Assembly (NCBI GenBank): GCA_963966185.1
Contig: CAWZYM010000434.1
Coordinates: forward strand, 124,001 to 188,000
Source: Rhabditoides inermis
Taxonomy: Eukaryota > Nematoda > Chromadorea > Rhabditida > Rhabditidae
Reading direction: 5' to 3'
DNA: 64,000 nt
Shown here: in pieces, positions 39,309 through 60,420 of the stretch
Numbering within the stretch: the stretch's first letter is position 1
Layout: each line of letters begins with the position of its first letter
The notes under the pieces: model-generated
What the model saw: the letters and a program-made list of their open reading frames with translations, nothing else
Database searches by the model: none
Told to the model about the DNA's origin: nothing
Program-made: the position numbers and the translations under genes

Positions 39309-39498
39309 TAGTGTTGGGCAAAATCCTAATCCGAGTTGGATTTTGGATTTTGGATTAATCAAAATCCCAGATATTCAGGGTTTTGGATTTCGGATTAATC
39401 CGTAATCCAAAATTGTGGATTTCGGGTTTTGGATTAACCCAAAATCCAAAATTTTTGGATTTTGGTTTTCAGATTAATCCAAACTTGTTTCTGTAAAG
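39309..39498 (+). mobile_element. hAT-like element, left-end fragment 4
   Basis: 190 bp, one base longer than fragments 1 and 2 (CAAAATCCAAAAT instead of CAAAACCAAAAT), with a private GATTTCGG near 39387. Same CTGTAAAG breakpoint into 30-mers. Confidence 0.82.
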
Positions 39499-39987
39499 GC
39501 AGAAATTTCAAACCGTCAGGTTCCAGCCGCAGAGATATCAAACCTGTCAGGTTCTGTTGGTAGAAATCTCAAACCGTCAGGTTCTGTTGACAGAGATCTC
39601 AAACCGTCAGGTTCTGTCGGTAGATATCTCAAACTGTCAGGTTCTAGCGCCAGATATCTCAAACCGTCAGGTTCTGCCGGCAGAATTCTCAAACCGTCAG
39701 GTTCTAGCGGCAGAGATCTCAAACTGTCAGGTTCTAGCGCCAGATATCTCAAACCGTCAGGTTCTGCAGGCAGAAATCTCAAACCGTCAGGTTCTAGCCG
39801 CAGAGAAATCGAACCGTCAGGTTCTGTCGGCAGAGATCTCAAACCGCCAGGTTCTAGGCCCAGAAATCTCAAATTGTCAGGTTCTAGCGCCAGAAAAATA
39901 AAAGCGTCAGGTTCAGCCGGCAGAAATCTCAAACCGTCAGGTTCTAGCCGCAGTGATGTGCAGCGAGCCATAGTGATGTGATGGTTA
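39499..39987 (+). repeat. 30-mer block 30 (489 bp, 5'-truncated)
   Basis: Third copy of the truncated block type with GGTTCCAGCC. Confidence 0.95.
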
Positions 39988-41005
39988 CACACTCTTAACA
40001 CACTCTTAACACACCGTTAACACACTGTTAACACACTGTTAACACACTGTTAACACACTGTTAACACACTGTTAACACACTGTTAACACACTGTTAACAC
40101 ACTGTTAACACACTGTTAACACACTGTTAACACACTGTTAACACACTGTTAACACACTGTTAACACACTGTTAACACACTGTTAACACACTGTTAACACA
40201 CTGTTAACACACTGTTAACACACTGTTAACACACTGTTAACACACTGTTAACACACTGTTAACACACTGTTAACACACTGTTAACACACTGTTAACACAC
40301 TGTTAACACACTGTTAACACACTGTTAACACACTGTTAACACACTGTTAACACACTGTTAACACACTGTTAACACACTGTTAACACACTGTTAACACACT
40401 GTTAACACACTGTTAACGCACTGTTAACACACTGTTAACGCACTGTTAACACACTGTTAACACACTGTTAACACACTGTTAACACACTGTTAACACACTG
40501 TTAACACACTGTTAACACACTGTTAACACACTGTTAACACACTGTTAACGCACTGTTAACACACTGTTAACACACTGTTAACACACTGTTAACACACTGT
40601 TAACACACTGTTAACACACTGTTAACACACTGTTAACACACTGTTAACACACTGTTAACACACTATTAACACACTGTTAAGACACTGTTAACACACTGTT
40701 AACACACTGTTAACACACTGTTAACACACTGTTAGCACACTGTTAACACACTGTTAACACACTGTTAGCACACTGTTAACACACTGTTAACACACTGTTA
40801 ACACACTGTTAACACACTGTTAACACACTGTTAACACACTGTTAACACACTGTTAACACACTGTTAACACACTGTTAACACACTGTTAACACACTGTTAA
40901 CACACTGTTAACACACTGTTAACACACTGTTAACACACTGTTAACACACTGTTAACACACTGTTAACACACTGTTAACACACTGTTAACACACTGTTAAC
41001 ACACG
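39988..41005 (+). repeat. 11-mer array, 92 units, with reduced island
   Basis: Several TTAACGCAC units near 40417-40555. The island near 40664 has a single TTAAGAC unit, followed by two TTAGCAC units. Confidence 0.97.
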
Positions 41006-41833
41006 GGGTTCTAGCGCCAGATATCTCAAACCGTCAGGTTCTAGCCGCAGAGATCTCAAACTGTCAGGTTCTGACGGTATTTATCTCAAACCGTCAGGTT
41101 CTAGGCCCAGAAATCTCAAACCGTCAGGTTCTGTTGGTAGAGATCTCAAACCGTCAGGTTCTGTTGGCAGAGAACTCAAATCGTCAGGTTCTGTCGGTAA
41201 ATATAAAACCGTCAGGTTCTAGCCGCAGAGATGTCAAACCGTCAGGTTCTAGCCGCAGAGATCTCAAACCGTCAGGTTCTAGCCGCAGAGATCTCAAACC
41301 GTCAGGTTCTAGCGCCAGATATCTCAAACCGTCAGGTTCAGCCGGCAGAAATTTCAAACCGTCAGGTTCTAGCCGCAGAGATATCAAACCTGTCAGGTTC
41401 TGTTGGTAGAAATCTCAAACCGTCAGGTTCTGTTGACAGAGATCTCAAACCGTCAGGTTCTGTCGGTAGATATCTCAAACTGTCAGGTTCTAGCGCCAGA
41501 TATCTCAAACCGTCAGGTTCTGCCGGCAGAATTCTCAAACCGTCAGGTTCTAGCGGCAGAGATCTCAAACTGTCAGGTTCTAGCGCCAGATATCTCAAAC
41601 CGTCAGGTTCTGCAGGCAGAAATCTCAAACCGTCAGGTTCTAGCCGCAGAGAAATCGAACCGTCAGGTTCTGTCGGCAGAGATCTCAAACCGCCAGGTTC
41701 TAGGCCCAGAAATCTCAAATTGTCAGGTTCTAGCGCCAGAAAAATAAAAGCGTCAGGTTCAGCCGGCAGAAATCTCAAACCGTCAGGTTCTAGCCGCAGT
41801 GATGTGCAGCGAGCCATAGTGATGTGATGGTTA
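41006..41833 (+). repeat. 30-mer block 31 (828 bp)
   Basis: Plain reference type with TTATCTCAAACC and AAATATAAAACC; no private marker noticed. Confidence 0.97.
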
Positions 41834-42210
41834 CACACTCTTAACACACTCTTAACACACCGTTAACACACCGTTAACACACTGTTAACACACTGTTAAC
41901 ACACTGTTAACACACTGTTAACACACTGTTAACACACTGTTAACACACTGTTAACACACTGTTAACACACTGTTAACACACTGTTAACACACTGTTAACA
42001 CACTGTTAACACACTGTTAACACACTGTTAACACACTGTTAACACACTGTTAACACACTGTTAACGCACTGTTAACACACTGTTAACACACTGTTAACAC
42101 ACTGTTAACACACTGTTAACACACTGTTAACACACTGTTAACACACTGTTAACACACTGTTAACACACTGTTAACACACTGTTAACACACTGTTAACACA
42201 CTGTAAACAC
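41834..42210 (+). repeat. 11-mer array, about 34 units, ending in hAT target
   Basis: Opens with two CTCTTAA and two CCGTTAA units. One TTAACGCAC near 42062. Ends GTAAACAC (42203-42210). Confidence 0.95.
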
Positions 42211-42400
42211 TAGTGTTGGGCAAAATCCTAATCCGAGTTGGATTTTGGATTTTGGATTAATCAAAATCCCAGATATTCAGGGTTTTGGATTTTGGATTAA
42301 TCCGTAATCCAAAATTGTGGATTTCGGGTTTTGGATTAACCCAAAATCCAAAATTTTTGGATTTTGGTTTTCAGATTAATCCAAACTTGTTTCTGTAAAG
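42211..42400 (+). mobile_element. hAT-like element, left-end fragment 5
   Basis: 190-bp form like fragment 4, with the same CTGTAAAG breakpoint; the following 30-mer has GGTTCTAGCC, not GGTTCCAGCC. It is the left end nearest to a right end (43201), but 400 bp of 30-mers and 36 11-mers lie between, so it is not an intact element. Confidence 0.82.
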
Positions 42401-42799
42401 GCAGAAATTTCAAACCGTCAGGTTCTAGCCGCAGAGATATCAAACCTGTCAGGTTCTGTTGGTAGAAATCTCAAACCGTCAGGTTCTGTTGACAGAGATC
42501 TCAAACCGTCAGGTTCTGTCGGTAGATATCTCAAACTGTCAGGTTCTAGCGCCAGATATCTCAAACCGTCAGGTTCTGCCGGCAGAATTCTCAAACCGTC
42601 AGGTTCTAGCGGCAGAGATCTCAAACTGTCAGGTTCTAGCGCCAGATATCTCAAACCGTCAGGTTCTGCAGGCAGAAATCTCAAATTGTCAGGTTCTAGC
42701 GCCAGAAAAATAAAAGCGTCAGGTTCAGCCGGCAGAAATCTCAAACCGTCAGGTTCTAGCCGCAGTGATGTGCAGCGAGCCATAGTGATGTGATGGTTA
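42401..42799 (+). repeat. 30-mer block 32 (399 bp, truncated and deleted)
   Basis: 5'-truncated at the transposon and lacking three consecutive monomers near 42684, where GCAGGCAGAAATC runs directly into the CAAATTGTC monomer end. Confidence 0.95.
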
Positions 42800-43200
42800 C
42801 ACACTCTTAACACACTCTTAACACACTCTTAACACACTGTTAACACACTGTTAACACACTGTTAACACACTGTTAACACACTGTTAACACACTGTTAACA
42901 CACTGTTAACACACTGTTAACACACTGTTAACACACTGTTAACACACTGTTAACACACTGTTAACACACTGTTAACACACTGTTAACACACTGTTAACAC
43001 ACTGTTAACACACTGTTAACACACTGTTAACACACTGTTAACACACTGTTAACACACTGTTAACACACTGTTAACACACTGTTAACACACTGTTAACACA
43101 CTGTTAACGCACTGTTAACACACTGTTAACACACTGTTAACACACTGTTAACACACTGTTAACACACTGTTAACACACTGTTAACACACTGTTAACACAC
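42800..43200 (+). repeat. 11-mer array, 36 units
   Basis: Three CTCTTAA units at the start and no CCGTTAA. One TTAACGCAC near 43107. Ends abruptly in TTAACACAC against transposon DNA, without the target octamer. Confidence 0.95.
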
Positions 43201-43535
43201 AGAAACAAGTTTGGATTAATCTGAAAACCAAAAATGTTTCTGTAAAGTTACAAAGGCGCCGTTATAGATTAAAAGCTCAAATAAAGTGAAATTTCATCAT
43301 TTAAAACAACATTATTTTAACAATTTGTAAACGAGTAGATTAATCCAAAATCCAAAACCCGGATTTCTGGATTTTGGATTTTGGATTAATCCAAATCCCC
43401 AAAAAACTGGATTTTGGATTTCGGATTAATCTGAAATCCGAAATTTCTAAGATTTTGGATTAAGATTCGGATTAATCCGATTAATCCGATTAATCCACGA
43501 TTAATCCAAATTTGGATTAATCCTGCCCAACACTA
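43201..43535 (+). mobile_element. hAT-like element, right-end fragment 1
   Basis: Ends in TGCCCAACACTA (43524-43535), the inverted repeat of the left terminus, followed by GTAAACAC. The interior (about 43248-43330) is AT-rich and does not occur in the left fragments. The first 34 bp (43201-43234) are an inverted copy of the left-fragment end (compare about 14614-14641). CTGTAAAG at 43240-43247 is where left fragments stop. Joining a 189-bp left piece to 43248-43535 would give an ancestral element of about 477 bp, the size of a MITE, with no coding capacity. Confidence 0.82.
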
Positions 43536-43543
43536 GTAAACAC
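43536..43543 (+). repeat. 8-bp target site duplication of the hAT-like element
   Basis: GTAAACAC, identical to the octamer before every left end. Eight bases is the duplication length known for hAT transposition. The next two units and TAAACTAAAC match the empty sites at 3188 and 7975. Confidence 0.85.
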
Positions 43544-44134
43544 ACTGTTAACACACTGTAAACTAAACACACTGTTAACACACTGTTAACACACTGTTAA
43601 CACACTGTTAACACACTGTTAACACACTGTTAACACACTGTTAACACACTGTTAACACACTGTTAACACACTGTTAACACACTGTTAACACACTGTTAAC
43701 ACACTGTTAACACACTGTTAACACACTGTTAACACACTGTTAACACACTGTTAACACACTGTTAACACACTGTTAACACACTGTTAACACACTGTTAACA
43801 CACTGTTAACACACTGTTAACACACTGTTAACACACTGTTAACACACTGTTAACACACTGTTAACACACTGTTAACACACTGTTAACACACTGTTAACAC
43901 ACTGTTAACACACTGTTAACACACTGTTAACACACTGTTAACACACTGTTAACACACTGTTAACACACTGTTAACACACTGTTAACACACTGTTAACACA
44001 CTGTTAACACACTGTTAACACACTGTTAACACACTGTTAACACACTGTTATCACACTGTTAACACACTGTTAACACACTGTTAACACACTGTTAACACAT
44101 TGTTAACACACTGTTAACACACTGTTAACACACG
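43544..44134 (+). repeat. 11-mer array, about 53 units
   Basis: Begins two units before the TAAACTAAAC marker. It has one TTATCAC unit near 44050 and one CACATTG near 44097. No CTCTTAA opening, because it starts at a transposon and not at a tail box. Confidence 0.95.
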
Positions 44135-45262
44135 GGGTTCTAGCGCCAGATATCTCAAACCGTCAGGTTCTAGCCGCAGAGATCTCAAACCGTCAGGTTC
44201 TAGCCGCAGAGATTTCAAACCGTCAGGTTCTAGCCGCAGAGATCTCAAACCGTCAGGTTCAAGCGCCAGATATCTCAAACCGTCAGGTTCAGCCGGCAGA
44301 AATCTCAAACCGTCAGGTTCTAGCCGCAGAGATATCAAACCGTCAGGTTCTGTTGGCAGAAATCTCAAACCGTCAGGTTCTGTTGACAGAGATCTCAAAC
44401 CGTCAGGTTCTGTCGGTAGATATCTCAAACTGTCAGGTTCTAGCGCCAGATATCTCAAACCGTCAGGTTCTGCCGGCAGAATTCTCAAACCGTCAGGTTC
44501 TAGCGGCAGAGGTCTCAAACTGTCAGGTTCTAGCGCCAGATATCTCAAACCGTCAGGTTCTGCAGGCAGAAATCTCAAACCGTCAGGTTCTAGCCGCAGA
44601 GATATCAAACCGTCAGGTTCTGTTGGCAGAGACCTCAAACCGTCAGGTTCTGTTGGCAGAGATCTCAAACCGTCATGTTCTGTCGGTAGATATCTCAAAC
44701 TGTCAGGTTCTAGCGCCAGATATCTCAAACCGTCAGGTTCTGCAGGCAGAAATCTCAAACCGTCAGGTTCTAGCCGCAGAGAAATCAAACCGTCAGGTTC
44801 TGTCGGCAGAGATCTCAATCCGTCAGGTTCTTTTGACAGAGATCTCAAACCGTTAGGTTCTGTCGGTAGATATCTCAAACTGTCAGGTTCTAGCCCCAGA
44901 AATCTCAAACCGTCAGGCTCCAGCCCCAGAATTCTCAAACCGTCAGGTTCTGCCGGCAGAATTCTCAAACCGTCAGGTTCTAGCGGCAGAGATCTCAAAC
45001 TGTCAGGTTCTAGCGCCAGATATCTCAACCGTCAGGTTCTGCAGGCAGAAATCTCAAACCGTCAGGTTCTAGCCGCAGAGAAATCGAACCGTCAGGTTCT
45101 GTCGGCAGAGATCTCAAACCGCCAGGTTCTAGGCCCAGAAATCTCAAATTGTCAGGTTCTAGCGCCAGAAAAATAAAAGCGTCAGGTTCAGCCGGCAGAA
45201 ATCTCAAACCGTCAGGTTCTAGCCGCAGTGATGTGCAGCGAGCCATAGTGATGTGATGTTTA
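44135..45262 (+). repeat. 30-mer block 33 (1128 bp, long type)
   Basis: Different monomer order from the 828-bp type: no GGTATTTATC monomer near the head, a second run of GTTGGCAGAG and GTCGGTAGATATC monomers, and the variants CATGTTCTG, TTTTGACAG and GGCTCCAGCCCC. One 29-bp monomer (CTCAACCGTC near 45026) shifts the register. The tail box ends in GTTTA. Confidence 0.96.
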
Positions 45263-45565
45263 CACACTCTTAACACACTCTTAACACACCGTTAACACAC
45301 TGTTAACACACTGTTAACACACTCTTAACACACCGTTAACACACTGTTAACACACTGTTAACACACTGTTAACACACTGTTAACACACTGTTAACACACT
45401 CTTAACACACCGTTAACACACTGTTAACACACTGTTAACACACTGTTAACACACTGTTAACACACTGTTAACACATTGTTAACACACTGTTAACACACTG
45501 TTAACACACTGTTAACACACTGTTAACACATTGTTAACACACTGTTAACACACTGTTAACACACG
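45263..45565 (+). repeat. 11-mer array, 27 units
   Basis: CTCTTAA-CCGTTAA pairs recur three times (start, near 45325 and near 45400). Two CACATTG units. Confidence 0.96.
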
Positions 45566-46693
45566 GGGTTCTAGCGCCAGATATCTCAAACCGTCAGGTT
45601 CTAGCCGCAGAGATCTCAAACCGTCAGGTTCTAGCCGCAGAGATTTCAAACCGTCAGGTTCTAGCCGCAGAGATCTCAAACCGTCAGGTTCAAGCGCCAG
45701 ATATCTCAAACCGTCAGGTTCAGCCGGCAGAAATCTCAAACCGTCAGGTTCTAGCCGCAGAGATATCAAACCGTCAGGTTCTGTTGGCAGAAATCTCAAA
45801 CCGTCAGGTTCTGTTGACAGAGATCTCAAACCGTCAGGTTCTGTCGGTAGATATCTCAAACTGTCAGGTTCTAGCGCCAGATATCTCAAACCGTCAGGTT
45901 CTGCCGGCAGAATTCTCAAACCGTCAGGTTCTAGCGGCAGAGGTCTCAAACTGTCAGGTTCTAGCGCCAGATATCTCAAACCGTCAGGTTCTGCAGGCAG
46001 AAATCTCAAACCGTCAGGTTCTAGCCGCAGAGATATCAAACCGTCAGGTTCTGTTGGCAGAGACCTCAAACCGTCAGGTTCTGTTGGCAGAGATCTCAAA
46101 CCGTCATGTTCTGTCGGTAGATATCTCAAACTGTCAGGTTCTAGCGCCAGATATCTCAAACCGTCAGGTTCTGCAGGCAGAAATCTCAAACCGTCAGGTT
46201 CTAGCCGCAGAGAAATCAAACCGTCAGGTTCTGTCGGCAGAGATCTCAATCCGTCAGGTTCTTTTGACAGAGATCTCAAACCGTTAGGTTCTGTCGGTAG
46301 ATATCTCAAACTGTCAGGTTCTAGCCCCAGAAATCTCAAACCGTCAGGCTCCAGCCCCAGAATTCTCAAACCGTCAGGTTCTGCCGGCAGAATTCTCAAA
46401 CCGTCAGGTTCTAGCGGCAGAGATCTCAAACTGTCAGGTTCTAGCGCCAGATATCTCAACCGTCAGGTTCTGCAGGCAGAAATCTCAAACCGTCAGGTTC
46501 TAGCCGCAGAGAAATCGAACCGTCAGGTTCTGTCGGCAGAGATCTCAAACCGCCAGGTTCTAGGCCCAGAAATCTCAAATTGTCAGGTTCTAGCGCCAGA
46601 AAAATAAAAGCGTCAGGTTCAGCCGGCAGAAATCTCAAACCGTCAGGTTCTAGCCGCAGTGATGTGCAGCGAGCCATAGTGATGTGATGTTTA
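45566..46693 (+). repeat. 30-mer block 34 (1128 bp, long type)
   Basis: I see no difference from block 33 in the positions compared; repeat distance 1431 bp. Confidence 0.96.
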
Positions 46694-47370
46694 CACACTC
46701 TTAACACACTCTTAACACACCGTTAACACACTGTTAACACACTGTTAACACACTCTTAACACACCGTTAACACACTGTTAACACACTGTTAACACACTGT
46801 TAACACACTGTTAACACACTGTTCACACACTCTTAACACACCGTTAACACACTGTTAACACACTGTTAACACACTGTTAACACACTGTTAACACACTGTT
46901 AACACACTGTTAACACACTGTTAACACACTGTTAACACACTGTTAACACACTGTTAACACACTGTTAACACACTGTTAACACACTGTTAACACACTGTTA
47001 ACACACTGTTAACACACTGTTAACACACTGTTAACACACTGTTAACACACTGTTAACACACTGTTAACACACTGTTAACACACTGTTAACACACTGTTAA
47101 CACACTGTTAACACACTGTTAACACACTGTTAACACACTGTTAACACACTGTTAACACACTGTTAACACACTGTTAACACACTGTTAACACACTGTTAAC
47201 ACACTGTTAACACACTGTTAACACACTGTTAACACACTGTTAACACACTGTTAACACACTGTTAACACACTGTTAACACACTGTTAACACACTGTTAACA
47301 CACTGTTAACACACTATTAACACACTGTTAACACACTGTTAACACACTGTTAACACACTGTTAACACACG
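46694..47370 (+). repeat. 11-mer array, 61 units
   Basis: Contains a rare GTTCACACACTC variant (near 46821) followed by CTTAACACACCG. The same variant flanks the inversion centre. One CTATTAA near 47313. Confidence 0.96.
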
Positions 47371-48498
47371 GGGTTCTAGCGCCAGATATCTCAAACCGTC
47401 AGGTTCTAGCCGCAGAGATCTCAAACCGTCAGGTTCTAGCCGCAGAGATTTCAAACCGTCAGGTTCTAGCCGCAGAGATCTCAAACCGTCAGGTTCTAGC
47501 GCCAGATATCTCAAACCGTCAGGTTCAGCCGGCAGAAATCTCAAACCGTCAGGTTCTAGCCGCAGAGATATCAAACCGTCAGGTTCTGTTGGCAGAAATC
47601 TCAAACCGTCAGGTTCTGTTGACAGAGATCTCAAACCGTCAGGTTCTGTCGGTAGATATCTCAAACTGTCAGGTTCTAGCGCCAGATATCTCAAACCGTC
47701 AGGTTCTGCCGGCAGAATTCTCAAACCGTCAGGTTCTAGCGGCAGAGGTCTCAAACTGTCAGGTTCTAGCGCCAGATATCTCAAACCGTCAGGTTCTGCA
47801 GGCAGAAATCTCAAACCGTCAGGTTCTAGCCGCAGAGATATCAAACCGTCAGGTTCTGTTGGCAGAGACCTCAAACCGTCAGGTTCTGTTGGCAGAGATC
47901 TCAAACCGTCATGTTCTGTCGGTAGATATCTCAAACTGTCAGGTTCTAGCGCCAGATATCTCAAACCGTCAGGTTCTGCAGGCAGAAATCTCAAACCGTC
48001 AGGTTCTAGCCGCAGAGAAATCAAACCGTCAGGTTCTGTCGGCAAAGATCTCAATCCGTCAGGTTCTTTTGACAGAGATCTCAAACCGTTAGGTTCTGTC
48101 GGTAGATATCTCAAACTGTCAGGTTCTAGCCCCAGAAATCTCAAACCGTCAGGCTCCAGCCCCAGAATTCTCAAACCGTCAGGTTCTGCCGGCAGAATTC
48201 TCAAACCGTCAGGTTCTAGCGGCAGAGATCTCAAACTGTCAGGTTCTAGCGCCAGATATCTCAACCGTCAGGTTCTGCAGGCAGAAATCTCAAACCGTCA
48301 GGTTCTAGCCGCAGAGAAATCGAACCGTCAGGTTCTGTCGGCAGAGATCTCAAACCGCCAGGTTCTAGGCCCAGAAATCTCAAATTGTCAGGTTCTAGCG
48401 CCAGAAAAATAAAAGCGTCAGGTTCAGCCGGCAGAAATCTCAAACCGTCAGGTTCTAGCCGCAGTGATGTGCAGCGAGCCATAGTGATGTGATGTTTA
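47371..48498 (+). repeat. 30-mer block 35 (1128 bp, long type)
   Basis: As block 33 apart from AGGTTCTAGCGCC (not AGGTTCAAGCGCC) near 47490 and GGCAAAGATCTC near 48042. Last block in the + orientation. Confidence 0.96.
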
Positions 48499-48910
48499 CA
48501 CACTCTTAACACACTCTTAACACACCGTTAACACACTGTTAACACACTCTTAACACACTCTTAACACACCGTTAACACACTGTTAACACACTGTTAACAC
48601 ACTGTTAACACACTGTTAACACACTGTTAACACACTGTTAACACACTGTTAACACACTGTTAACACACTGTTAACACACTGTTAACACACTGTTAACACA
48701 CTGTTAACACACTGTTAACACACTGTTAACACACTGTTAACACACTGTTAACACACTGTTAACACACTGTTAACACACTGTTAACACACTGTTAACACAC
48801 TGTTAACACACTGTTAACACACTGTTAACACACTGTTAACACACTGTTAACACACTGTTAACACACTGTTAACACACTGTTAACACACTGTTAACACACT
48901 GTTAACACAC
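48499..48910 (+). repeat. 11-mer array, 37 units
   Basis: Opening variants repeated twice, then uniform units, ending in TTAACACAC against the transposon exactly as at 43200. Confidence 0.95.
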
Positions 48911-49245
48911 AGAAACAAGTTTGGATTATTCTGAAAACCAAAAATGTTTCTGTAAAGTTACAAAGGCGCCGTTATAGATTAAAAGCTCAAATAAAGTGAA
49001 ATTTCATCATTTAAAACAACATTATTTTAACAATTTGTAAACGAGTAGATTAATCCAAAATCCAAAACCCGGATTTCTGGATTTTGGATTTTGGATTAAT
49101 CCAAATCCCCAAAAAACTGGATTTTGGATTTCGGATTAATCTGAAATCCGAAATTTCTAAGATTTTGGATTAAGATTCGGATTAATCCGATTAATCCGAT
49201 TAATCCACGATTAATCCAAATTTGGATTAATCCTGCCCAACACTA
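48911..49245 (+). mobile_element. hAT-like element, right-end fragment 2
   Basis: Same 335 bp and same inverted 5' piece as 43201-43535, one difference noted (GGATTATTC for GGATTAATC near 48926). Ends TGCCCAACACTA. A duplicate carried by satellite amplification 5710 bp downstream. Confidence 0.82.
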
Positions 49246-49253
49246 GTAAACAC
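49246..49253 (+). repeat. Target site duplication beside right-end fragment 2
   Basis: GTAAACAC, followed by the same two units and TAAACTAAAC marker as at 43536. Confidence 0.85.
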
Positions 49254-49473
49254 ACTGTTAACACACTGTAAACTAAACACACTGTTAACACACTGTTAAC
49301 ACACTCTTAACACACCGTTAACACACTGTTAACACACTGTTAACACACTGTTAACACACTGTTAACACACTGTTCACACACTCTTAACACACCGTTAACA
49401 CACTGTTAACACACTGTTAACACACTGTTAACACACTGTTAACACACTGTTAACACACTGTTAACACACTGTT
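49254..49473 (+). repeat. 11-mer array, about 20 units, up to the inversion centre
   Basis: Contains CTCTTAA-CCGTTAA near 49304 and the rare GTTCACACACTC variant at about 49372, then CCGTTAA and seven standard units before the centre. The variant order copies part of the array at 46694. Confidence 0.95.
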
Positions 49474-49509
49474 AACAGTGTGTTAACAGTGTGTTAACAG
49501 TGTGTTAAC
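49438..49509. repeat. Perfect 72-bp palindrome; orientation switch of the whole array
   Basis: The axis lies between 49473 and 49474 inside GTTAAC; the centre reads CACACTGTTAACAGTGTG. Each arm is 36 bp of 11-mers. Left of it all cassettes read CACACTGTTAA, right of it TTAACAGTGTG. Beyond 49509 the right arm has the complement of CCGTTAA and GTTCACACACTC, found four units farther out on the left, so the arms are homologous but asymmetric. Confidence 0.95.
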
Positions 49510-50500
49510 GGTGTGTTAAGAGTGTGTGAACAGTGTGTTAATGTGTTAACACTGTTAACAGTGTGTTAACAGTGTGTTAACAGTGTGTTAACAGTGTGTT
49601 AACAGTGTGTTAACAGTGTGTTAACAGTGTGTTAACAGTGTGTTAACAGTGTGCTAACAGTGTGTTAACAGTGTGTTAACAGTGTGTTAACAGTGTGTTA
49701 ACAGTGTGTTAACAGTGTGTTAACAGTGTGTTAACAGTGTGTTAACAGTGTGTTAACAGTGTGTTAACAGTGTGTTAACAGTGTGTTAACAGTGTGTTAA
49801 CAGTGTGTTAACAGTGTGTTAACAGTGTGTTAACAGTGTGTTAACAGTGTGTTAACAGTGTGTTAACAGTGTGTTAACAGTGTGTTAACAGTGTGTTAAC
49901 AGTGTGTTAACAGTGTGTTAACAGTGTGTTAACAGTGTGTTAACAGTGTGTTAACAGTGTGTTAACAGTGTGTTAACAGTGTGTTAACAGTGTGTTAACA
50001 GTGTGTTAACAGTGTGTTAACAGTGTGTTAACAGTGTGTTAACAGTGTGTTAACAGTGTGTTAACAGTGTGTTAACAGTGTGTTAACAGTGTGTTTACAG
50101 TGTGTTAACAGTGTGTTAACAGTGTGTTAACAGTGTGTTAACAGTGTGTTAACAGTGTGTTAACAGTGTGTTAACAGTGTGTTAACAGTGTGTTAACAGT
50201 GTGTTAACAGTGTGTTAACAGTGTGTTAACAGTGTGTTAACAGTGTGTTAACAGTGTGTTAACAATGTGTTAACAGTGTGTTAACAGTGTGTTAACAGTG
50301 TGTTAACAATGTGTTAACAGTGTGTTAACAGTGTGTTAACAGTGTGTTAACAGTGTGTTAACAGTGTGTTAACAGTGTGTTAACAGTGTGTTAACGGTGT
50401 GTTAAGAGTGTGTTAACAGTGTGTTAACAGTGTGTTAACAGTGTGTTAACAGTGTGTTAACAGTGTGTTAACGGTGTGTTAAGAGTGTGTTAAGAGTGTG
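49474..50500 (-). repeat. 11-mer array, about 93 units, reversed
   Basis: First array in the - orientation. An irregular patch at about 49533-49566 includes GTGTTAATGTGTTAACAC and a second small palindrome, CACTGTTAACAGTG (49550-49563). Other variants are GTGTGTTTACAG near 50090, one CTAACAG near 49653 and two AACAATG. It ends with reversed CCGTTAA and CTCTTAA units before the tail box. Confidence 0.95.
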
Positions 50501-52108
50501 TAACCATCACATCACTATGGCTCGCTGCACATCACTGCGGCTAGAACCTGACGGTTTGAGATTTCTGCCGGCTGAACCTGACGCTTTTATTTTTCTGGCG
50601 CTAGAACCTGACAATTTGAGATTTCTGGGCCTAGAACCTGGCGGTTTGAGATCTCTGCCGACAGAACCTGACGGTTCGATTTCTCTGCGGCTAGAACCTG
50701 ACGGTTTGAGATTTCTGCCTGCAGAACCTGACGGTTTGAGATATCTGGCGCTAGAACCTGACAGTTTGAGATCTCTGCCGCTAGAACCTGACGGTTTGAG
50801 AATTCTGCCGGCAGAACCTGACGGTTTGAGATATCTGGCGCTAGAACCTGACAGTTTGAGATATCTACCGACAGAACCTGACGGTTTGAGATCTCTGTCA
50901 ACAGAACCTGACGGTTTGAGATTTCTACCAACAGAACCTGACAGGTTTGATATCTCTGCGGCTAGAACCTGACGGTTTGAAATTTCTGCCGGCTGAACCT
51001 GACGGTTTGAGATATCTGGCGCTAGAACCTGACGGTTTGAGATCTCTGCGGCTAGAACCTGACGGTTTGAGATCTCTGCGGCTAGAACCTGACGGTTTGA
51101 CATCTCTGCGGCTAGAACCTGACGGTTTTATATTTACCGACAGAACCTGACGATTTGAGTTCTCTGCCAACAGAACCTGACGGTTTGAGATCTCTACCAA
51201 CAGAACCTGACGGTTTGAGATTTCTGGGCTTAGAACCTGACGGTTTGAGATAAATACCGTCAGAACCTGACAGTTTGAGGTTTCTGCGGCTAGAACCTGA
51301 CGGTTTGAGATTTCTGCCTGCAAAACCTGACGGTTTGAGATATCTGGCGCTAGAACCTGACAGTTTGAGATATCTACCGACAGAACATGACGGTTTGAGA
51401 TCTCTGCCAACAGAACCTGACGGTTTGAGGTCTCTGCCAACAGAACCTGACGGTTTGATATCTCTGCGGCTAGAACCTGACGGTTTGAGATTTCTGCCTG
51501 CAGAACCTGACGGTTTGAGATATCTGGCGCTAGAACCTTACAGTTTGAGACCTCTGCCGCTAGAACCTGACGGTTTGAGAATTCTGCCGGCAGAACCTGA
51601 CGGTTTGAGATATCTGGCGCTAGAACCTGAGAGTTTGAGATATCTACCGACAGAACCTGACGGTTTGAGATCTCTGTCAACAGAACCTGACGGTTTGAGA
51701 TTTCTGCCAACAGAACCTGACGGTTTGATATCTCTGCGGCTAGAACCTGACGGTTTGAGATTTCTGCCGGCTGAACCTGACGGTTTGAGATATCTGGCGC
51801 TAGAACCTGACGGTTTGAGATCTCTGCGGCTAGAACCTGACGGTTTGAAATCTCTGCGGCTAGAACCTGACGGTTTGAGATCTCTGCGGCTAGAACCTGA
51901 CGGTTTTAGATAATTACCAACAGAACCTGACGATTTGAGTTCTCTGCCAACAGAACTTGACGGTTTGAGATCTCTACCAACAGAACCTGACGGTTTGAGA
52001 TTTCTGGGCCTAGAACCTGACGGTTTGAGATAAATACCGTCAGAACCTGACAGTTTGAGATCTCTGCGGCTAGAACCTGACGGTTTGAGATATCTGGCGC
52101 TAGAACCC
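50501..52108 (-). repeat. 30-mer block 36 (1608 bp, fusion of two blocks)
   Basis: From the tail box (GGTTA form) it is an 828-type block up to its head marker GATAAATACCGTC (51249-51261). It does not reach the CCCCG head; it continues into a long-type block with a second head marker at 52029-52041 and then ends CTAGAACCCCG. The intervening 11-mers, tail box and part of the second block are missing. Confidence 0.93.
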
Positions 52109-53159
52109 CGTGTGTTAACAGTGTGTTAACAGTGTGTTAACAATGTGTTAACAGTGTGTTAACAGTGTGTTAACAGTGTGTTAACAGTGTGTTAACAGTG
52201 TGTTAACAGTGTGTTAACAGTGTGTTAACAGTGTGTTAACAGTGTGTTAACAGTGTGTTAACAGTGTGTTAACAGTGTGTTAACAGTGTGTTAACAGTGT
52301 GTTAACAGTGTGTTAACAGTGTGTTAACAGTGTGTTAACAGTGTGTTAACAGTGTGTTAACAGTGTGTTAACAGTGTGTTAACAGTGTGTTAACAGTGTG
52401 TTAACAGTGTGTTAACAGTGTGTTAACAGTGTGTTAACAGTGTGTTAACAGTGTGTTAACAGTGTGTTAACAGTGTGTTAACAGTGTGTTAACAGTGTGT
52501 TAACAGTGTGTTAACAGTGTGTTAACAGTGTGTTAACAGTGCGTTAACAGTGTGTTAACAGTGTGTTAACAGTGTGTTAACAGTGCGTTAACAGTGTGTT
52601 AACAGTGTGTTAACAGTGTGTTAACAGTGCGTTAACAGTGTGTTAACAGTGTGTTAACAGTGCGTTAACAGTGTGTTAACAGTGTGTTAACAGTGTGTTA
52701 ACAGTGTGTTAACAGTGTGTTAACAGTGCGTTAACAGTGTGTTAACAGTGTGTTAACAGTGTGTTAACAGTGTGTTAACAGTGTGTTAACAGTGTGTTAA
52801 CAGTGTGTTAACAGTGTGTTAACAGTGTGTTAACAGTGTGTTAACAGTGTGTTAACAGTGTGTTAACAGTGTGTTAACAGTGTGTTAACAGTGTGTTAAC
52901 AGTGTGTTAACAGTGTGTTAACAGTGTGTTAACAGTGTGTTAACAGTGTGTTAACAGTGTGTTAACAGTGTGTTAACAGTGTGTTAACAGTGTGTAAACA
53001 GTGTGTAAACAGTGTGTTAACGGTGTGTTAAGAGTGTGTTAAGAGTGTGTTAACAGTGTGTTAACAGTGTGTAAACAGTGTGTTAACGGTGTGTTAAGAG
53101 TGTGTTAAGAGTGTGTTAACAGTGTGTTAACGGTGTGTTAAGAGTGTGTTAAGAGTGTG
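52109..53159 (-). repeat. 11-mer array, 95 units, reversed
   Basis: Contains a cluster of GTGCGTTAAC units (about 52541-52731). Near the tail (about 52993-53157) GTGTGTAAACAG, CCGTTAA and CTCTTAA complements are repeated three times. Confidence 0.96.
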
Positions 53160-54789
53160 TAAACATCACATCACTATGGCTCGCTGCACATCACTGCGGC
53201 TAGAACCTGACGGTTTGAGATTTCTGCCGGCTGAACCTGACGCTTTTATTTTTCTGGCGCTAGAACCTGACAATTTGAGATTTCTGGGCCTAGAACCTGG
53301 CGGTTTGAGATCTCTGCCGACAGAACCTGACGGTTCGATTTCTCTGCGGCTAGAACCTGACGGTTTGAGATTTCTGCTGCAGAACCTGACGGTTGAGATT
53401 CTGCCTGCAGAACCTGACGTTGAGATATCTGCGCTAGAACCTGACGTTTGAGATTCTGCCGGCAGAACCTGACGGTTTGAGAATTCTGGGGCTGGAGCCT
53501 GACGGTTTGAGATTTCTGGGGCTAGAACCTGACAGTTTGAGATATCTACCGACAGAACCTAACGGTTTGAGATCTCTGTCAAAAAGAACCTGACGGATTG
53601 AGATCTCTGCCGACAGAACCTGACGGTTTGATTTCTCTGCGGCTAGAACCTGACGGTTTGAGATTTCTGCCTGCAGAACCTGACGGTTTGAGATATCTGG
53701 CGCTAAAACCTGACAGTTTGAGATATCTACCGACAGAACATGACGGTTTGAGATCTCTGCCAACAGAACCTGACGGTTTGACATCTCTGCGGCTAGAACC
53801 TGACGGTTTTATATTTACCGACAGAACCTGACGATTTGAGTTCTCTGCCAACAGAACCTGACGGTTTGAGATCTCTACCAACAGAACCTGACGGTTTGAG
53901 ATTTCTGGGCTTAGAACCTGACGGTTTGAGATAAATACCGTCAGAACCTGACAGTTTGAGGTTTCTGCGGCTAGAACCTGACGGTTTGAGATTTCTGCCT
54001 GCAAAACCTGACGGTTTGAGATATCTGGCGCTAGAACCTGACAGTTTGAGATATCTACCGACAGAACATGACGGTTTGAGATCTCTGCCAACAGAACCTG
54101 ACGGTTTGAGGTCTCTGCCAACAGAACCTGACGGTTTGATATCTCTGCGGCTAGAACCTGACGGTTTGAGATTTCTGCCTGCAGAACCTGACGGTTTGAG
54201 ATATCTGGCGCTAGAACCTTACAGTTTGAGACCTCTGCCGCTAGAACCTGACGGTTTGAGAATTCTGCCGGCAGAACCTGACGGTTTGAGATATCTGGCG
54301 CTAGAACCTGAGAGTTTGAGATATCTACCGACAGAACCTGACGGTTTGAGATCTCTGTCAACAGAACCTGACGGTTTGAGATTTCTGCCAACAGAACCTG
54401 ACGGTTTGATATCTCTGCGGCTAGAACCTGACGGTTTGAGATTTCTGCCGGCTGAACCTGACGGTTTGAGATATCTGGCGCTAGAACCTGACGGTTTGAG
54501 ATCTCTGCGGCTAGAACCTGACGGTTTGAAATCTCTGCGGCTAGAACCTGACGGTTTGAGATCTCTGCGGCTAGAACCTGACGGTTTTAGATAATTACCA
54601 ACAGAACCTGACGATTTGAGTTCTCTGCCAACAGAACTTGACGGTTTGAGATCTCTACCAACAGAACCTGACGGTTTGAGATTTCTGGGCCTAGAACCTG
54701 ACGGTTTGAGATAAATACCGTCAGAACCTGACAGTTTGAGATCTCTGCGGCTAGAACCTGACGGTTTGAGATATCTGGCGCTAGAACCC
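53160..54789 (-). repeat. 30-mer block 37 (1630 bp, fusion, with indel cluster)
   Basis: Tail box of the GTTTA form and a K-type first part like block 38, then a second part like block 36, again with two head markers (53930-53942, 54710-54722). Between about 53376 and 53457 several monomers are shortened by single-base losses in short homopolymers. Confidence 0.92.
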
Positions 54790-55840
54790 CGTGTGTTAAC
54801 AGTGTGTTAACAGTGTGTTAACAATGTGTTAACAGTGTGTTAACAGTGTGTTAACAGTGTGTTAACAGTGTGTTAACAGTGTGTTAACAGTGTGTTAACA
54901 GTGTGTTAACAGTGTGTTAACAGTGTGTTAACAGTGTGTTAACAGTGTGTTAACAGTGTGTTAACAGTGTGTTAACAGTGTGTTAACAGTGTGTTAACAG
55001 TGTGTTAACAGTGTGTTAACAGTGTGTTAACAGTGTGTTAACAGTGTGTTAACAGTGTGTTAACAGTGTGTTAACAGTGTGTTAACAGTGTGTTAACAGT
55101 GTGTTAACAGTGTGTTAACAGTGTGTTAACAGTGTGTTAACAGTGTGTTAACAGTGTGTTAACAGTGTGTTAACAGTGTGTTAACAGTGTGTTAACAGTG
55201 TGTTAACAGTGTGTTAACAGTGCGTTAACAGTGTGTTAACAGTGTGTTAACAGTGTGTTAACAGTGCGTTAACAGTGTGTTAACAGTGTGTTAACAGTGT
55301 GTTAACAGTGCGTTAACAGTGTGTTAACAGTGTGTTAACAGTGCGTTAACAGTGTGTTAACAGTGTGTTAACAGTGTGTTAACAGTGTGTTAACAGTGTG
55401 TTAACAGTGCGTTAACAGTGTGTTAACAGTGTGTTAACAGTGTGTTAACAGTGTGTTAACAGTGTGTTAACAGTGTGTTAACAGTGTGTTAACAGTGTGT
55501 TAACAGTGTGTTAACAGTGTGTTAACAGTGTGTTAACAGTGTGTTAACAGTGTGTTAACAGTGTGTTAACAGTGTGTTAACAGTGTGTTAACAGTGTGTT
55601 AACAGTGTGTTAACAGTGTGTTAACAGTGTGTTAACAGTGTGTTAACAGTGTGTTAACAGTGTGTTAACAGTGTGTAAACAGTGTGTAAACAGTGTGTTA
55701 ACGGTGTGTTAAGAGTGTGTTAAGAGTGTGTTAACAGTGTGTTAACAGTGTGTAAACAGTGTGTTAACGGTGTGTTAAGAGTGTGTTAAGAGTGTGTTAA
55801 CAGTGTGTTAACGGTGTGTTAAGAGTGTGTTAAGAGTGTG
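54790..55840 (-). repeat. 11-mer array, 95 units, reversed
   Basis: Same length and same order of GTGCGTTAAC and GTGTGTAAACAG variants as 52109-53159. Confidence 0.96.
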
Positions 55841-56787
55841 TAAACATCACATCACTATGGCTCGCTGCACATCACTGCGGCTAGAACCTGACGGTTTGAG
55901 ATTTCTGCCGGCTGAACCTGACGCTTTTATTTTTCTGGCGCTAGAACCTGACAATTTGAGATTTCTGGGCCTAGAACCTGGCGGTTTGAGATCTCTGCCG
56001 ACAGAACCTGACGGTTCGATTTCTCTGCGGCTAGAACCTGACGGTTTGAGATTTCTGCCTGCAGAACCTGACGGTTGAGATATCTGGCGCTAGAACCTGA
56101 CAGTTTGAGATCTCTGCCGCTAGAACCTGACGGTTTGAGAATTCTGCCGGCAGAACCTGACGGTTTGAGAATTCTGGGGCTGGAGCCTGACGGTTTGAGA
56201 TTTCTGGGGCTAGAACCTGACAGTTTGAGATATCTACCGACAGAACCTAACGGTTTGAGATCTCTGTCAAAAAGAACCTGACGGATTGAGATCTCTGCCG
56301 ACAGAACCTGACGGTTTGATTTCTCTGCGGCTAGAACCTGACGGTTTGAGATTTCTGCCTGCAGAACCTGACGGTTTGAGATATCTGGCGCTAAAACCTG
56401 ACAGTTTGAGATATCTACCGACAGAACATGACGGTTTGAGATCTCTGCCAACAGAACCTGACGGTTTGAGGTCTCTGCCAACAGAACCTGACGGTTTGAT
56501 ATCTCTGCGGCTAGAACCTGACGGTTTGAGATCTCTGCGGCTAGAACCTGACGGTTTGACATCTCTGCGGCTAGAACCTGACGGTTTTATATTTACCGAC
56601 AGAACCTGACGATTTGAGTTCTCTGCCAACAGAACCTGACGGTTTGAGATCTCTACCAACAGAACCTGACGGTTTGAGATTTCTGGGCCTAGAACCTGAC
56701 GGTTTGAGATAAATACCGTCAGAACCTGACAGTTTGAGATCTCTGCGGCTAGAACCTGACGGTTTGAGATATCTGGCGCTAGAACCC
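55841..56787 (-). repeat. 30-mer block 38 (947 bp)
   Basis: Shares the tail-proximal part of the long type (GTTTA tail, 29-bp monomer near 56073, GGGGCTGGAGCC near 56174, TCAAAAAGAACC near 56267) joined to the head-proximal part of the 828-type (GGTTTTATATTTACC near 56583, GATAAATACCGTC). A recombinant of the two types. Confidence 0.95.
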
Positions 56788-57728
56788 CGTGTGTTAACAG
56801 TGTGTTAACAGTGTGTTAACAGTGTGTTAACAGTGTGTTAACAGTGTGTTAACAGTGTGTTAACAGTGTGTTAACAGTGTGTTAACAGTGTGTTAACAGT
56901 GCGTTAACAGTGTGTTAACAGTGTGTTAACAGTGTGTTAACAGTGTGTTAACAGTGTGTTAACAGTGTGTTAACAGTGTGTTAACAGTGTGTTAACAGTG
57001 TGTTAACAGTGTGTTAACAGTGTGTTAACAGTGTGTTAACAGTGTGTTAACAGTGTGTTAACAGTGTGTTAACAGTGTGTTAACAGTGTGTTAACAGTGT
57101 GTTAACAGTGCGTTAACAGTGTGTTAACAGTGTGTTAACAGTGTGTTAACAGTGCGTTAACAGTGTGTTAACAGTGTGTTAACAGTGCGTTAACAGTGTG
57201 TTAACAGTGTGTTAACAGTGTGTTAACAGTGTGTTAACAGTGTGTTAACAGTGTGTTAACAGTGTGTTAACAGTGTGTTAACAGTGTGTTAACAGTGTGT
57301 TAACAGTGTGTTAACAGTGTGTTAACAGTGTGTTAACAGTGTGTTAACAGTGTGTTAACAGTGTGTTAACAGTGTGTTAACAGTGTGTTAACAGTGTGTT
57401 AACAGTGTGTTAACAGTGTGTTAACAGTGTGTTAACAGTGTGTTAACAGTGTGTTAACAGTGTGTTAACAGTGTGTTAACAGTGTGTTAACAGTGTGTTA
57501 ACAGTGTGTTAACAGTGTGTAAACAGTGTGTAAACAGTGTGTTAACGGTGTGTTAAGAGTGTGTTAAGAGTGTGTTAACAGTGTGTTAACGGTGTGTTAA
57601 GAGTGTGTTAAGAGTGTGTTAACAGTGTGTTAACAGTGTGTAAACAGTGTGTTAACGGTGTGTTAAGAGTGTGTTAAGAGTGTGTTAACAGTGTGTTAAC
57701 GGTGTGTTAAGAGTGTGTTAAGAGTGTG
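56788..57728 (-). repeat. 11-mer array, 85 units, reversed
   Basis: Scattered GTGCGTTAAC units (near 56898 and 57107-57190). The CTCTTAA-CCGTTAA complement motif is repeated four times before the tail box. Confidence 0.96.
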
Positions 57729-58675
57729 TAAACATCACATCACTATGGCTCGCTGCACATCACTGCGGCTAGAACCTGACGGTTTGAGATTTCTGCCGGC
57801 TGAACCTGACGCTTTTATTTTTCTGGCGCTAGAACCTGACAATTTGAGATTTCTGGGCCTAGAACCTGGCGGTTTGAGATCTCTGCCGACAGAACCTGAC
57901 GGTTCGATTTCTCTGCGGCTAGAACCTGACGGTTTTAGATTTCTGCCTGCAGAACCTGACGGTTGAGATATCTGGCGCTAGAACCTGACAGTTTGAGATC
58001 TCTGCCGCTAGAACCTGACGGTTTGAGAATTCTGCCGGCAGAACCTGACGGTTTGAGAATTCTGGGGCTGGAGCCTGACGGTTTGAGATTTCTGGGGCTA
58101 GAACCTGACAGTTTGAGATATCTACCGACAGAACCTAACGGTTTGAGATCTCTGTCAAAAAGAACCTGACGGATTGAGATCTCTGCCGACAGAACCTGAC
58201 GGTTTGATTTCTCTGCGGCTAGAACCTGACGGTTTGAGATTTCTGCCTGCAGAACCTGACGGTTTGAGATATCTGGCGCTAAAACCTGACAGTTTGAGAT
58301 ATCTACCGACAGAACATGACGGTTTGAGATCTCTGCCAACAGAACCTGACGGTTTGAGGTCTCTGCCAACAGAACCTGACGGTTTGATATCTCTGCGGCT
58401 AGAACCTGACGGTTTGAGATCTCTGCGGCTAGAACCTGACGGTTTGACATCTCTGCGGCTAGAACCTGACGGTTTTATATTTACCGACAGAACCTGACGA
58501 TTTGAGTTCTCTGCCAACAGAACCTGACGGTTTGAGATCTCTACCAACAGAACCTGACGGTTTGAGATTTCTGGGCCTAGAACCTGACGGTTTGAGATAA
58601 ATACCGTCAGAACCTGACAGTTTGAGATCTCTGCGGCTAGAACCTGACGGTTTGAGATATCTGGCGCTAGAACCC
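57729..58675 (-). repeat. 30-mer block 39 (947 bp)
   Basis: Copy of block 38 with GGTTTTAGATTTC near 57931. Confidence 0.95.
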
Positions 58676-59473
58676 CGTGTGTTAACAGTGTGTTAACAGT
58701 GTGTTAACAGTGTGTTAACAGTGTGTTAACAGTGTGTTAACAGTGTGTTAACAGTGTGTTAACAGTGTGTTAACAGTGTGTTAACAGTGTGTTAACAGTG
58801 TGTTAACAGTGTGTTAACAGTGTGTTAACAGTGTGTTAACAGTGTGTTAACAGTGTGTTAACAGTGTGTTAACAGTGTGTTAACAGTGTGTTAACAGTGT
58901 GTTAACAGTGCGTTAACAGTGTGTTAACAGAGTGTTAACAGTGTGTTAACAGTGTGTTAACAGTGTGTTAACAGTGTGTTAACAGTGTGTTAACAGTGTG
59001 TTAACAGTGTGTTAACAGTGTGTTAACAGTGTGTTAACAGTGTGTTAACAGTGTGTTAACAGTGTGTTAACAGTGTGTTAACAGTGTGTTAACAGTGTGT
59101 TAACAGTGTGTTAACAGTGTGTTAACAGTGTGTTAACAGTGTGTTAACAGTGTGTTAACAGTGTGTTAACAGTGTGTTAACAGTGTGTTAACAGTGTGTT
59201 AACAGTGTGTTAACAGTGTGTTAACAGTGTGTTAACAGTGTGTTAACAGTGTGTAAACAGTGTGTTAACGGTGTGTAAACAGTGTGTTAACGGTGTGTTA
59301 AGAGTGTGTTAAGAGTGTGTTAACAGTGTGTTAACGGTGTGTTAAGAGTGTGTTAAGAGTGTGTTAACAGTGTGTTAACAGTGTGTAAACAGTGTGTTAA
59401 CGGTGTGTTAAGAGTGTGTTAAGAGTGTGTTAACAGTGTGTTAACGGTGTGTTAAGAGTGTGTTAAGAGTGTG
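58676..59473 (-). repeat. 11-mer array, 72 units, reversed
   Basis: One GAGTGTTAAC unit near 58930; the same repeated opening motifs beside the tail box at 59240-59470. Confidence 0.96.
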
Positions 59474-60420
59474 TAAACATCACATCACTATGGCTCGCTG
59501 CACATCACTGCGGCTAGAACCTGACGTTTTGAGATTTCTGCCGGCTGAACCTGACGCTTTTATTTTTCTGGCGCTAGAACCTGACAATTTGAGATTTCTG
59601 GGCCTAGAACCTGGCGGTTTGAGATCTCTGCCGACAGAACCTGACGGTTCGATTTCTCTGCGGCTAGAACCTGACGGTTTGAGATTTCTGCCTGCAGAAC
59701 CTGACGGTTGAGATATCTGGCGCTAGAACCTGACAGTTTGAGATCTCTGCCGCTAGAACCTGACGGTTTGAGAATTCTGCCGGCAGAACCTGACGGTTTG
59801 AGAATTCTGGGGCTGGAGCCTGACGGTTTGAGATTTCTGGGGCTAGAACCTGACAGTTTGAGATATCTACCGACAGAACCTAACGGTTTGAGATCTCTGT
59901 CAAAAAGAACCTGACGGATTGAGATCTCTGCCGACAGAACCTGACGGTTTGATTTCTCTGCGGCTAGAACCTGACGGTTTGAGATTTCTGCCTGCAGAAC
60001 CTGACGGTTTGAGATATCTGGCGCTAGAACCTGACAGTTTGAGATATCTACCGACAGAACATGACGGTTTGAGATCTCTGCCAACAGAACCTGACGGTTT
60101 GAGGTCTCTGCCAACAGAACCTGACGGTTTGATATCTCTGCGGCTAGAACCTGACGGTTTGAGATCTCTGCGGCTAGAACCTGACGGTTTGACATCTCTG
60201 CGGCTAGAACCTGACGGTTTTATTTTTACCGACAGAACCTGACGATTTGAGTTCTCTGCCAACAGAACCTGACGGTTTGAGATCTCTACCAACAGAACCT
60301 GACGGTTTGAGATTTCTGGGCCTAGAACCTGACGGTTTGAGATAAATACCGTCAGAACCTGACAGTTTGAGATCTCTGCGGCTAGAACCTGACGGTTTGA
60401 GATATCTGGCGCTAGAACCC
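59474..60420 (-). repeat. 30-mer block 40 (947 bp)
   Basis: Copy of block 38 with GACGTTTTGAG near 59524, TTTTATTTTTACC near 60220 and GGCGCTAGAACC (not GGCGCTAAAACC) near 60020. Confidence 0.95.

What the first reader, a model, noticed from the sequence alone, without database searches (positions are those of the whole stretch)
49371..49566. Head-to-head inversion of a whole compound satellite at a perfect 72-bp palindrome
All cassettes before 49473 point one way and all after 49474 the other. The axis is a GTTAAC, giving a 72-bp perfect palindrome (49438-49509). The rare GTTCACACACTC plus CCGTTAA variants occur on both sides, seven units from the axis on the left and three on the right. That suggests a fold-back or template switch between nearby units, then loss or gain of four units. 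A further irregular patch (49533-49566) has a second mini-palindrome. It could mark a replication-based inversion, a centre of array growth, or an assembly join between two opposed contigs.
Basis: partly seen in the sequence, partly recalled or inferred. Interest (0 to 1): 0.8.

Follow-up and report, generated by a model that had tools for sequence, protein, structure and literature searches.

The report
Fold-back scar flips a satellite array
In a roundworm genome a long repeat array flips direction at one point, and the letters there show that the DNA end probably folded back and copied 68 bases of itself: a known kind of repair scar, recorded unusually clearly because the repeat unit is almost its own mirror image.

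Summary
The window is part of a 302.5-kb contig (C434) of a 172.6-Mb genome with TTAGGC arrays, so a nematode. In the window all cassettes point one way before 49473 and the other way after; the 72-bp palindrome is exact. GTTCACACACT occurs three times in 302.5 kb, all within 2.7 kb of the axis; CTTAACACACCG is not rare (202 copies). The 68 bases right of the axis (49474-49541) are an exact inverted copy of 49362-49429, offset by 44 bp. The unit is TGTTAACA+CAC: eight of eleven bases are self-complementary, only the 3-nt spacer records direction. A fold-back primed at that core (36-nt loop, 68 bp copied), then capture by an opposed array at the 49542-49564 scar, explains the offset in one step; no four-unit gain or loss is needed. 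Cassette orders on the two sides differ, so the axis is no growth centre. The forward block (C434 97.4-173.5 kb) has a second scarred boundary 76 kb to the left, outside the window. In-place inversion is my best larger reading, but cassette tests are mixed. Without reads a chimera is not excluded. A new example of known processes.

The parts
1..49473 (+). Forward-pointing part of the compound satellite (11-bp arrays, 30-bp arrays, linker, transposon-like blocks); part of the + block C434:97434-173473
48911..49248 (+). 338-bp transposon-like block (GGATTAATCC-rich) inside the last forward 11-bp array
   Evidence: its 23-bp end word is at 36 places in the genome, 15 on C434
49249..49473 (+). Left arm: 11-bp array (TGTTAACA+CAC) up to the axis
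49362..49429 (+). Likely template: 68 bp whose exact reverse complement stands right of the axis (an identical 68-mer also starts at C434:170811, window 46811)
49426..49433 (.). Self-complementary core TGTTAACA at which the fold-back would have paired
   Evidence: pairing inferred
49470..49477 (.). Axis core TGTTAACA (8-bp inverted microhomology), 36 nt from the pairing core
49438..49509 (.). 72-bp perfect palindrome
   Evidence: 49430-49517 folds as one hairpin, -47.6 kcal/mol, z -12.5
49474..49541 (-). Templated inverted copy, 68 bp, including the rare GTTCACACACT variant
49542..49564 (.). Second join: 3-bp deficit and a unit with a 1-nt spacer, ending in the 16-bp mini-palindrome 49549-49564
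49565..50501 (-). Right arm: 11-bp array of the reverse domain
50531..64000 (-). Reverse-pointing cassettes (stretches of 1637, 1659, 976, 976, 976, 1616 and, cut by the window end, 1366 bp between 11-bp arrays), unlike the 1157-bp ones next to the axis on the left

Best explanation
The axis is a breakpoint scar. The end of the forward array folded back on itself, paired at the 8-bp self-complementary core TGTTAACA four units (44 bp) upstream through a 36-nt loop, copied 68 bp of its own strand in reverse, and was then joined to an array pointing the other way (scar 49542-49564). Shown: the direction switch, the exact 68-bp inverted copy with its rare variant, the 44-bp offset, the core at the join, the scar, and different cassette orders on the two sides. 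Inferred: that the copying was intrastrand, and that a double-strand break or stalled fork started it. Inferred with moderate confidence (about 0.5): the whole event was an in-place inversion of about 76 kb whose other end is the also scarred switch at C434:97375-97434.
For: The 68-mer right of the axis occurs on C434 only there and, reverse-complemented, at 170811 and 173362, both in the forward block within 2.7 kb of the axis. Of ten offsets tried (0 to 99 by 11) only 44 gives more than 36 matching bases: it gives 68. GTTCACACACT: 3 copies among about 9980 units. The unit is TGTTAACA plus a 3-nt spacer; the left-arm strand folds into core-core hairpins, none of 200 shuffles folding as well. 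Other switches also favour the core: 5 of 14 (stretches of at least 14 bp) against 9 of 121 for random joins, P 0.0026; without the second copy of a flip duplicated with its cassette, 5 of 12, P 0.0012. The other boundary of the forward block also carries short reversed pieces, though none of its joins is on the core. For the inversion: 338-bp and 712/713-bp TE-bearing cassettes occur in the left reverse domain and the right half of the forward block, not in the right reverse domain; cassettes 116530 and 119108 in the left part of the forward block match the right reverse domain best; best-left minus best-right similarity rises along the block (Spearman 0.62; 0 of 51 circular shifts as high). 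A like event is known in yeast: fold-back at an imperfect 10-bp inverted microhomology with a 41-nt loop; reversed insertions of 2 to about 150 bp, mostly under 14 bp, captured by end joining (PMC11724301, passages).
Against: No reads. The 68-bp template is identical at 170811, so the 44-bp spacing is the nearest choice, not proven. The inversion tests are mixed. In one search the difference is zero for 31 of 52 forward cassettes, so the trend rests on 21 (19 positive, 2 negative), and one cassette in the left part (114416) leans to the left domain. Plain similarity against distance favours the present order on the left side (rho -0.41 as is, -0.24 re-inverted, where 51 of 51 circular shifts do as well or better; near cassettes only: -0.37 as is, 0.03 re-inverted); only the right side improves on re-inversion (0.23 to -0.02; near cassettes 0.22 to -0.32). 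The cassette beside the left break (96433) is the best left-domain match of many forward cassettes, as a mirror duplication would give, though two cassettes of the right reverse domain match them as well. Undoing the inversion would make one 11-bp array of about 1850 bp against a maximum of 1308 among 187. Indel-free inverted matches between the domains reach about 2.5 kb at most.
Confidence: 0.66

Rival explanations
1. Assembly or library chimera: a fold-back chimeric molecule (whole-genome amplification can make inverted chimeras; recalled, no call) or a wrong join of opposed satellite contigs created the switch.
For: The satellite cannot be checked without reads; all 8001 exact 22-mers of the 11-bp array lie on this one contig, and such arrays are hard to assemble.
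Against: A two-strand or missed-adapter read would mirror the arms over kilobases; here the block and cassette orders differ. A plain contig join would not make a 68-bp templated copy. At least one other flip on the contig looks like real DNA: it stands identically in two duplicated cassettes (110139 and 113008).
Confidence: 0.17
2. Inverted duplication instead of inversion (shares the fold-back scar of the best explanation): the reverse array folded back at C434:97.4 kb, made a mirrored forward block that later expanded, and the block's far end was joined to the right-hand reverse array at the axis studied here.
For: The cassette left of that break (96433) is the best left-domain match of many forward 857-bp cassettes, and the 1157-bp cassettes at the block's far end best match 78978; rank correlation -0.46 over the 37 cassettes with a score above 0.97. 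The mirror distance model beats all 51 circular shifts.
Against: The scale is wrong: cassettes at 168-172 kb best match 79 kb, where a mirror about 97.4 kb predicts about 22-27 kb. It does not explain the 1756- and 1637-bp cassettes, which match the right reverse domain. Its rho (-0.13) is weaker than that of the present order (-0.41) and of re-inversion (-0.24).
Confidence: 0.25
3. Zero-spacer template switch on the sister strand, followed by gain or loss of four units.
For: Same final sequence; 11-bp arrays differ widely in length, so unit-number changes happen.
Against: Needs two events where one suffices; the tract is exact at offset 44.
Confidence: 0.12
4. A selected structural element (cruciform or macro-dyad with a role in heterochromatin or centromeres).
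For: Conserved inversion sites in Tribolium satellites have been proposed to have such a role (PMC13081366, abstract and passages); the palindrome folds strongly.
Against: This large switch is single: the 28-mer occurs 3 times in the assembly and at the other two places one spacer only is reversed. Cassette orders on the two sides differ.
Confidence: 0.03

Closest known systems
Fold-back templated inverted insertions at double-strand breaks in yeast (PMC11724301; passages read)
   Same: Short inverted microhomology, loop of about 40 nt, short reversed copy of the broken end, then capture of the other end by end joining.
   Different: There the break is induced and the locus is not a satellite, and most insertions are under 14 bp; here the trace is evolutionary, 68 bp, in a satellite whose every unit carries the microhomology, at a boundary between large opposed domains.
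Fold-back inverted duplications in human genomes (PMC3907307; passages read)
   Same: Unduplicated spacer (the loop) between the two orientations and short inverted microhomology (2-8 bp at 13 junctions).
   Different: Sequenced spacers of 766-70,466 bp and large duplications there; 36 nt and 68 bp here.
Inversions inside primate alpha-satellite arrays (PMC11062924; passages read)
   Same: Reversal of a block inside a satellite array.
   Different: Much larger (3.2 Mb in an orangutan) and validated there with native ultra-long reads; no fold-back insertion is mentioned in the passages I saw.
Macro-dyad symmetries of Tribolium satellites (PMC13081366; abstract and passages)
   Same: Satellite subarrays of opposite direction meeting at defined inversion sites.
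   Different: Thousands of conserved inversion sites and arms that tend to symmetry there; one large unsymmetric switch of this polarity here.
Short-range template switching in great apes (PMC7954356; search listing only)
   Same: By title and abstract start, local template-switch copying.
   Different: Not read further; satellite arrays not assessed.

Membership tests
Fold-back (templated inverted) insertion | Inverted microhomology at the join | tested here: met
   8-bp TGTTAACA at the axis
Fold-back (templated inverted) insertion | Exact inverted copy of nearby sequence beyond the periodic pattern | tested here: met
   68 bp including a variant present three times in 302.5 kb
Fold-back (templated inverted) insertion | Spacer (loop) between the two orientations | tested here: met
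   44-bp offset, 36 nt between cores; a second possible template about 2.6 kb away is identical, so the loop length is the nearest choice
Fold-back (templated inverted) insertion | Dependence on DNA polymerase delta and end joining | not testable with these tools
   genetic requirement
In-place inversion of a satellite block | Two opposed boundaries on one molecule | tested here: met
   97375-97434 and 173473/4 on the assembled contig C434
In-place inversion of a satellite block | Undoing it restores a continuous cassette order | tested here: inconclusive
   difference test for it, distance and best-match tests mixed, one resulting array too long
In-place inversion of a satellite block | Confirmed in native reads or other individuals | not testable with these tools
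   no reads or second genome held
Macro-dyad satellite (Tribolium type) | Recurrent conserved inversion site | tested here: not met
   28-bp axis word at three places, two of them single reversed spacers
Macro-dyad satellite (Tribolium type) | Arms mirror each other over kilobases | tested here: not met
   different block and cassette order on the two sides; inverted matches of about 1.5 kb between the 20-kb arms exist, but the 12 longest of 1714 are not at mirror positions

The most novel reading that the evidence does not exclude
The 11-bp unit (8-bp self-complementary core plus a 3-nt spacer) makes the array flip-prone: each fold-back repair reverses one or many CAC/GTG spacers, so the array keeps a readable record of fold-back repair and generates large direction changes at a raised rate.
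Probability: 0.3. Interest if true: 0.62.

Novelty: new member of a known kind. Interest (0 to 1): 0.42.

Why it matters
How opposed domains arise inside satellites is hard to see, because near-identical units hide the join. Here a variant present only three times, and a unit whose direction lives in three bases, let the join be read to the base. If reads confirm it, the contig (14 switches at the 14-bp cut-off) is a natural record of fold-back repair in repeats, and comparison between individuals would give a flip rate.

Tried and rejected
Rejected: axis as centre of growth. I first leaned on ungapped identity of the arms (71 of 100, then 11-33 of 100 per window), but that measure depends on the phase of the 11-bp repeat, so I rely on block and cassette order instead. 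Rejected: patch 49542-49564 as clear further inversions; it can equally be a 3-bp deletion plus a unit with a 1-nt spacer, so I call it a scar only. Rejected from switch counts: apparent switches made by point variants or short stretches (44 raw; 18, 14, 14 and 10 at cut-offs of 12, 14, 16 and 18 bp, with 7, 5, 5 and 5 on the core). I first read the rise of left-minus-right similarity as decisive for an inversion; weakened that and I lowered the claim. Stretches under 190 bp or of 2300 bp and more were dropped; one search also skipped pairs differing by more than 12% in length. A 9-bp unit shared by the scar and C434:97740 also occurs reverse-complemented at three other places, so I do not use it. 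The P values treat switches as independent, which they are not wholly. Rfam on the window: nothing at gathering scores. Species not identified. Text search for the repeat words gave 12 papers; the 10 listed looked unrelated by title. Searches (15 of 31 listed; 12 of 18 listed) listed no paper recognisable as describing this satellite.

Full report
Setting. The window is C434:124001-188000 of a 172,641,834-base assembly in 599 contigs; C434 is 302,500 bases. The genome holds 3423 + 2209 matches to a four-fold TTAGGC word, the nematode telomere repeat (recalled), so I treat it as a nematode; the species was not identified. I read the whole contig. It is a compound satellite: 11-bp arrays, 30-bp arrays, a linker and transposon-like blocks, with a 32-bp satellite and an insertion inside, ending in about 12 kb of other sequence. 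All 8001 exact 22-mers of the 11-bp array in the genome lie on this contig (2339 forward, 5662 reverse).

Check. The palindrome 49438-49509 is perfect, 72 bp, and the longest on the contig. The direction change is complete in the window. GTTCACACACT occurs three times in 302.5 kb (170821 and 173372 forward, 173521 reverse), while CTTAACACACCG is common (59 + 143).

Anatomy. Written as TGTTAACA+CAC, the unit is an 8-bp self-complementary core and a 3-nt spacer. In the window, left of the axis 1503 of 1507 spacers between perfect cores read CAC; right of it 435 of 441 read GTG. Direction is therefore carried by three of eleven bases, and every unit offers an 8-bp inverted microhomology. The left-arm strand (49362-49476) folds into core-core hairpins (z -4.2); the axis stretch 49430-49517 folds into one long hairpin (z -12.5).

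The copy. The first 68 bases right of the axis equal the reverse complement of 49362-49429. Offsets 0, 11, 22, 33 and 99 match for 36 bases, 55, 66, 77 and 88 for fewer; offset 44 matches for 68. On C434 that 68-mer is found only here and, reversed, at 170811 and 173362. A variant otherwise absent from the reverse domains stands inside it. Fold-back of the forward strand's end onto the core four units upstream (36 nt between cores) gives this in one step. The copy ends at 49541; a 3-base deficit and a unit with a 1-nt spacer follow, with a 16-bp mini-palindrome at 49549-49564. From 49549 the sequence matches C434:56431 for 105 bases, mostly plain units.

Arms. Outward from the axis the left arm is 225 bp of 11-bp array, a 338-bp block, 384 bp of array, then three 1157-bp stretches of 30-bp array with 11-bp arrays between; the right arm is about 1000 bp of 11-bp array, then 1637, 1659 and three of 976 bp. 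Inverted matches of up to about 1.5 kb at 98-99% join the two 20-kb arms (1714 found), but the 12 longest shown are not at mirror positions. The arms are not mirror images. Cassettes of the forward block and of the reverse domains can be 99.5-100% identical (output partly cut).

Wider picture. C434 has three large direction domains: reverse to about 97.37 kb, forward from about 97.43 to 173.47 kb, reverse to about 290 kb. The left boundary also holds short reversed pieces; its joins share 1 and 3 bases or lie in an irregular patch, not on the core. With stretches of at least 14 bp I count 14 switches, 5 of them on the 8-bp core, against 9 of 121 for random joins (P 0.0026); four of the 14 are two copies of one small flip in duplicated cassettes, and with one copy removed it is 5 of 12 (P 0.0012).

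Inversion or not. For: 338-bp and 712/713-bp TE-bearing cassettes occur in the left reverse domain and the right half of the forward block, not in the right reverse domain; the 1756- and 1637-bp cassettes in the forward block's left part match the right reverse domain; best-left minus best-right similarity rises along the block (rho 0.62; 0 of 51 circular shifts as high; 52 forward, 77 left and 51 right cassettes). But that difference is zero for 31 of the 52, and 114416, in the left part, leans to the left domain. Against: similarity to the left domain falls with distance in the present order (rho -0.41) more than after re-inversion (-0.24, for which 51 of 51 circular shifts do as well or better), and among near left cassettes -0.37 becomes 0.03; the right side improves with re-inversion (0.23 to -0.02; near cassettes 0.22 to -0.32). 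The cassette beside the left break is the best left-domain match of many forward cassettes, a mirror-like sign, though 258063 and 268926 in the right reverse domain match them equally. Re-inversion would create an 11-bp array of about 1850 bp against a maximum of 1308 among 187. Indel-free inverted matches between domains reach about 2.5 kb at most. I hold in-place inversion at about one half, inverted duplication at one quarter; both share the fold-back scar at the axis.

Known context. Fold-back insertions at an imperfect 10-bp inverted microhomology with a 41-nt loop are described in yeast (PMC11724301, passages); fold-back duplications with an unduplicated spacer in human (PMC3907307, passages); inversions in primate alpha-satellite arrays, validated with reads (PMC11062924, passages); opposed satellite subarrays in Tribolium, said there to be documented only in that genus (PMC13081366, abstract and passages), while a later paper on Edessa bugs also uses the term (PMC13427858, listing only). 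Palindromes are reported in many Caenorhabditis satellite families (PMC4595182, passages). The process is therefore known; searches listed no paper recognisable as describing this satellite.

Limits. No reads, no second individual, no species. A chimera stays possible (0.17).

Noticed in passing
C434:97375-97434 (outside the window, 26.6 kb left of it; locus L014): Second large direction switch (reverse to forward), with two short reversed pieces inside: possible partner of the axis in the window.
   Followed up: yes
C434:110139-110155 and 113008-113024 (L015): The same small flip in two cassettes 2869 bp apart, so probably inherited through cassette duplication.
   Followed up: partly
C434:204374-222081 (L018-L020): 17.7-kb array of an unrelated 32-bp satellite (about 558 copies, about 30% GC) inside the reverse domain.
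   Followed up: no
C434 from about 290.5 kb to 302500 (L027, L028): Looks like an LTR retroelement: long gag-pol-like frames and the same 115-aa frame near both ends; the BEL/Pao label is from recall, no family search was made.
   Followed up: no
C434 about 252760-254825 (L023): GC-rich insertion inside the satellite whose first few hundred bases recur at its far end.
   Followed up: no
G000:C271:683442 onward: A word of the 30-bp unit also forms an array on at least this other contig (first 100 of 8937 places listed), where no exact 22-mer of the 11-bp array occurs.
   Followed up: partly
window 48911-49248, 43201-43538 and other 338-bp blocks: Transposon-like block rich in GGATTAATCC; its 23-bp end word lies at 36 places in the genome, 21 of them on other contigs, so a dispersed element seems to have been caught and amplified by the satellite.
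   Followed up: partly
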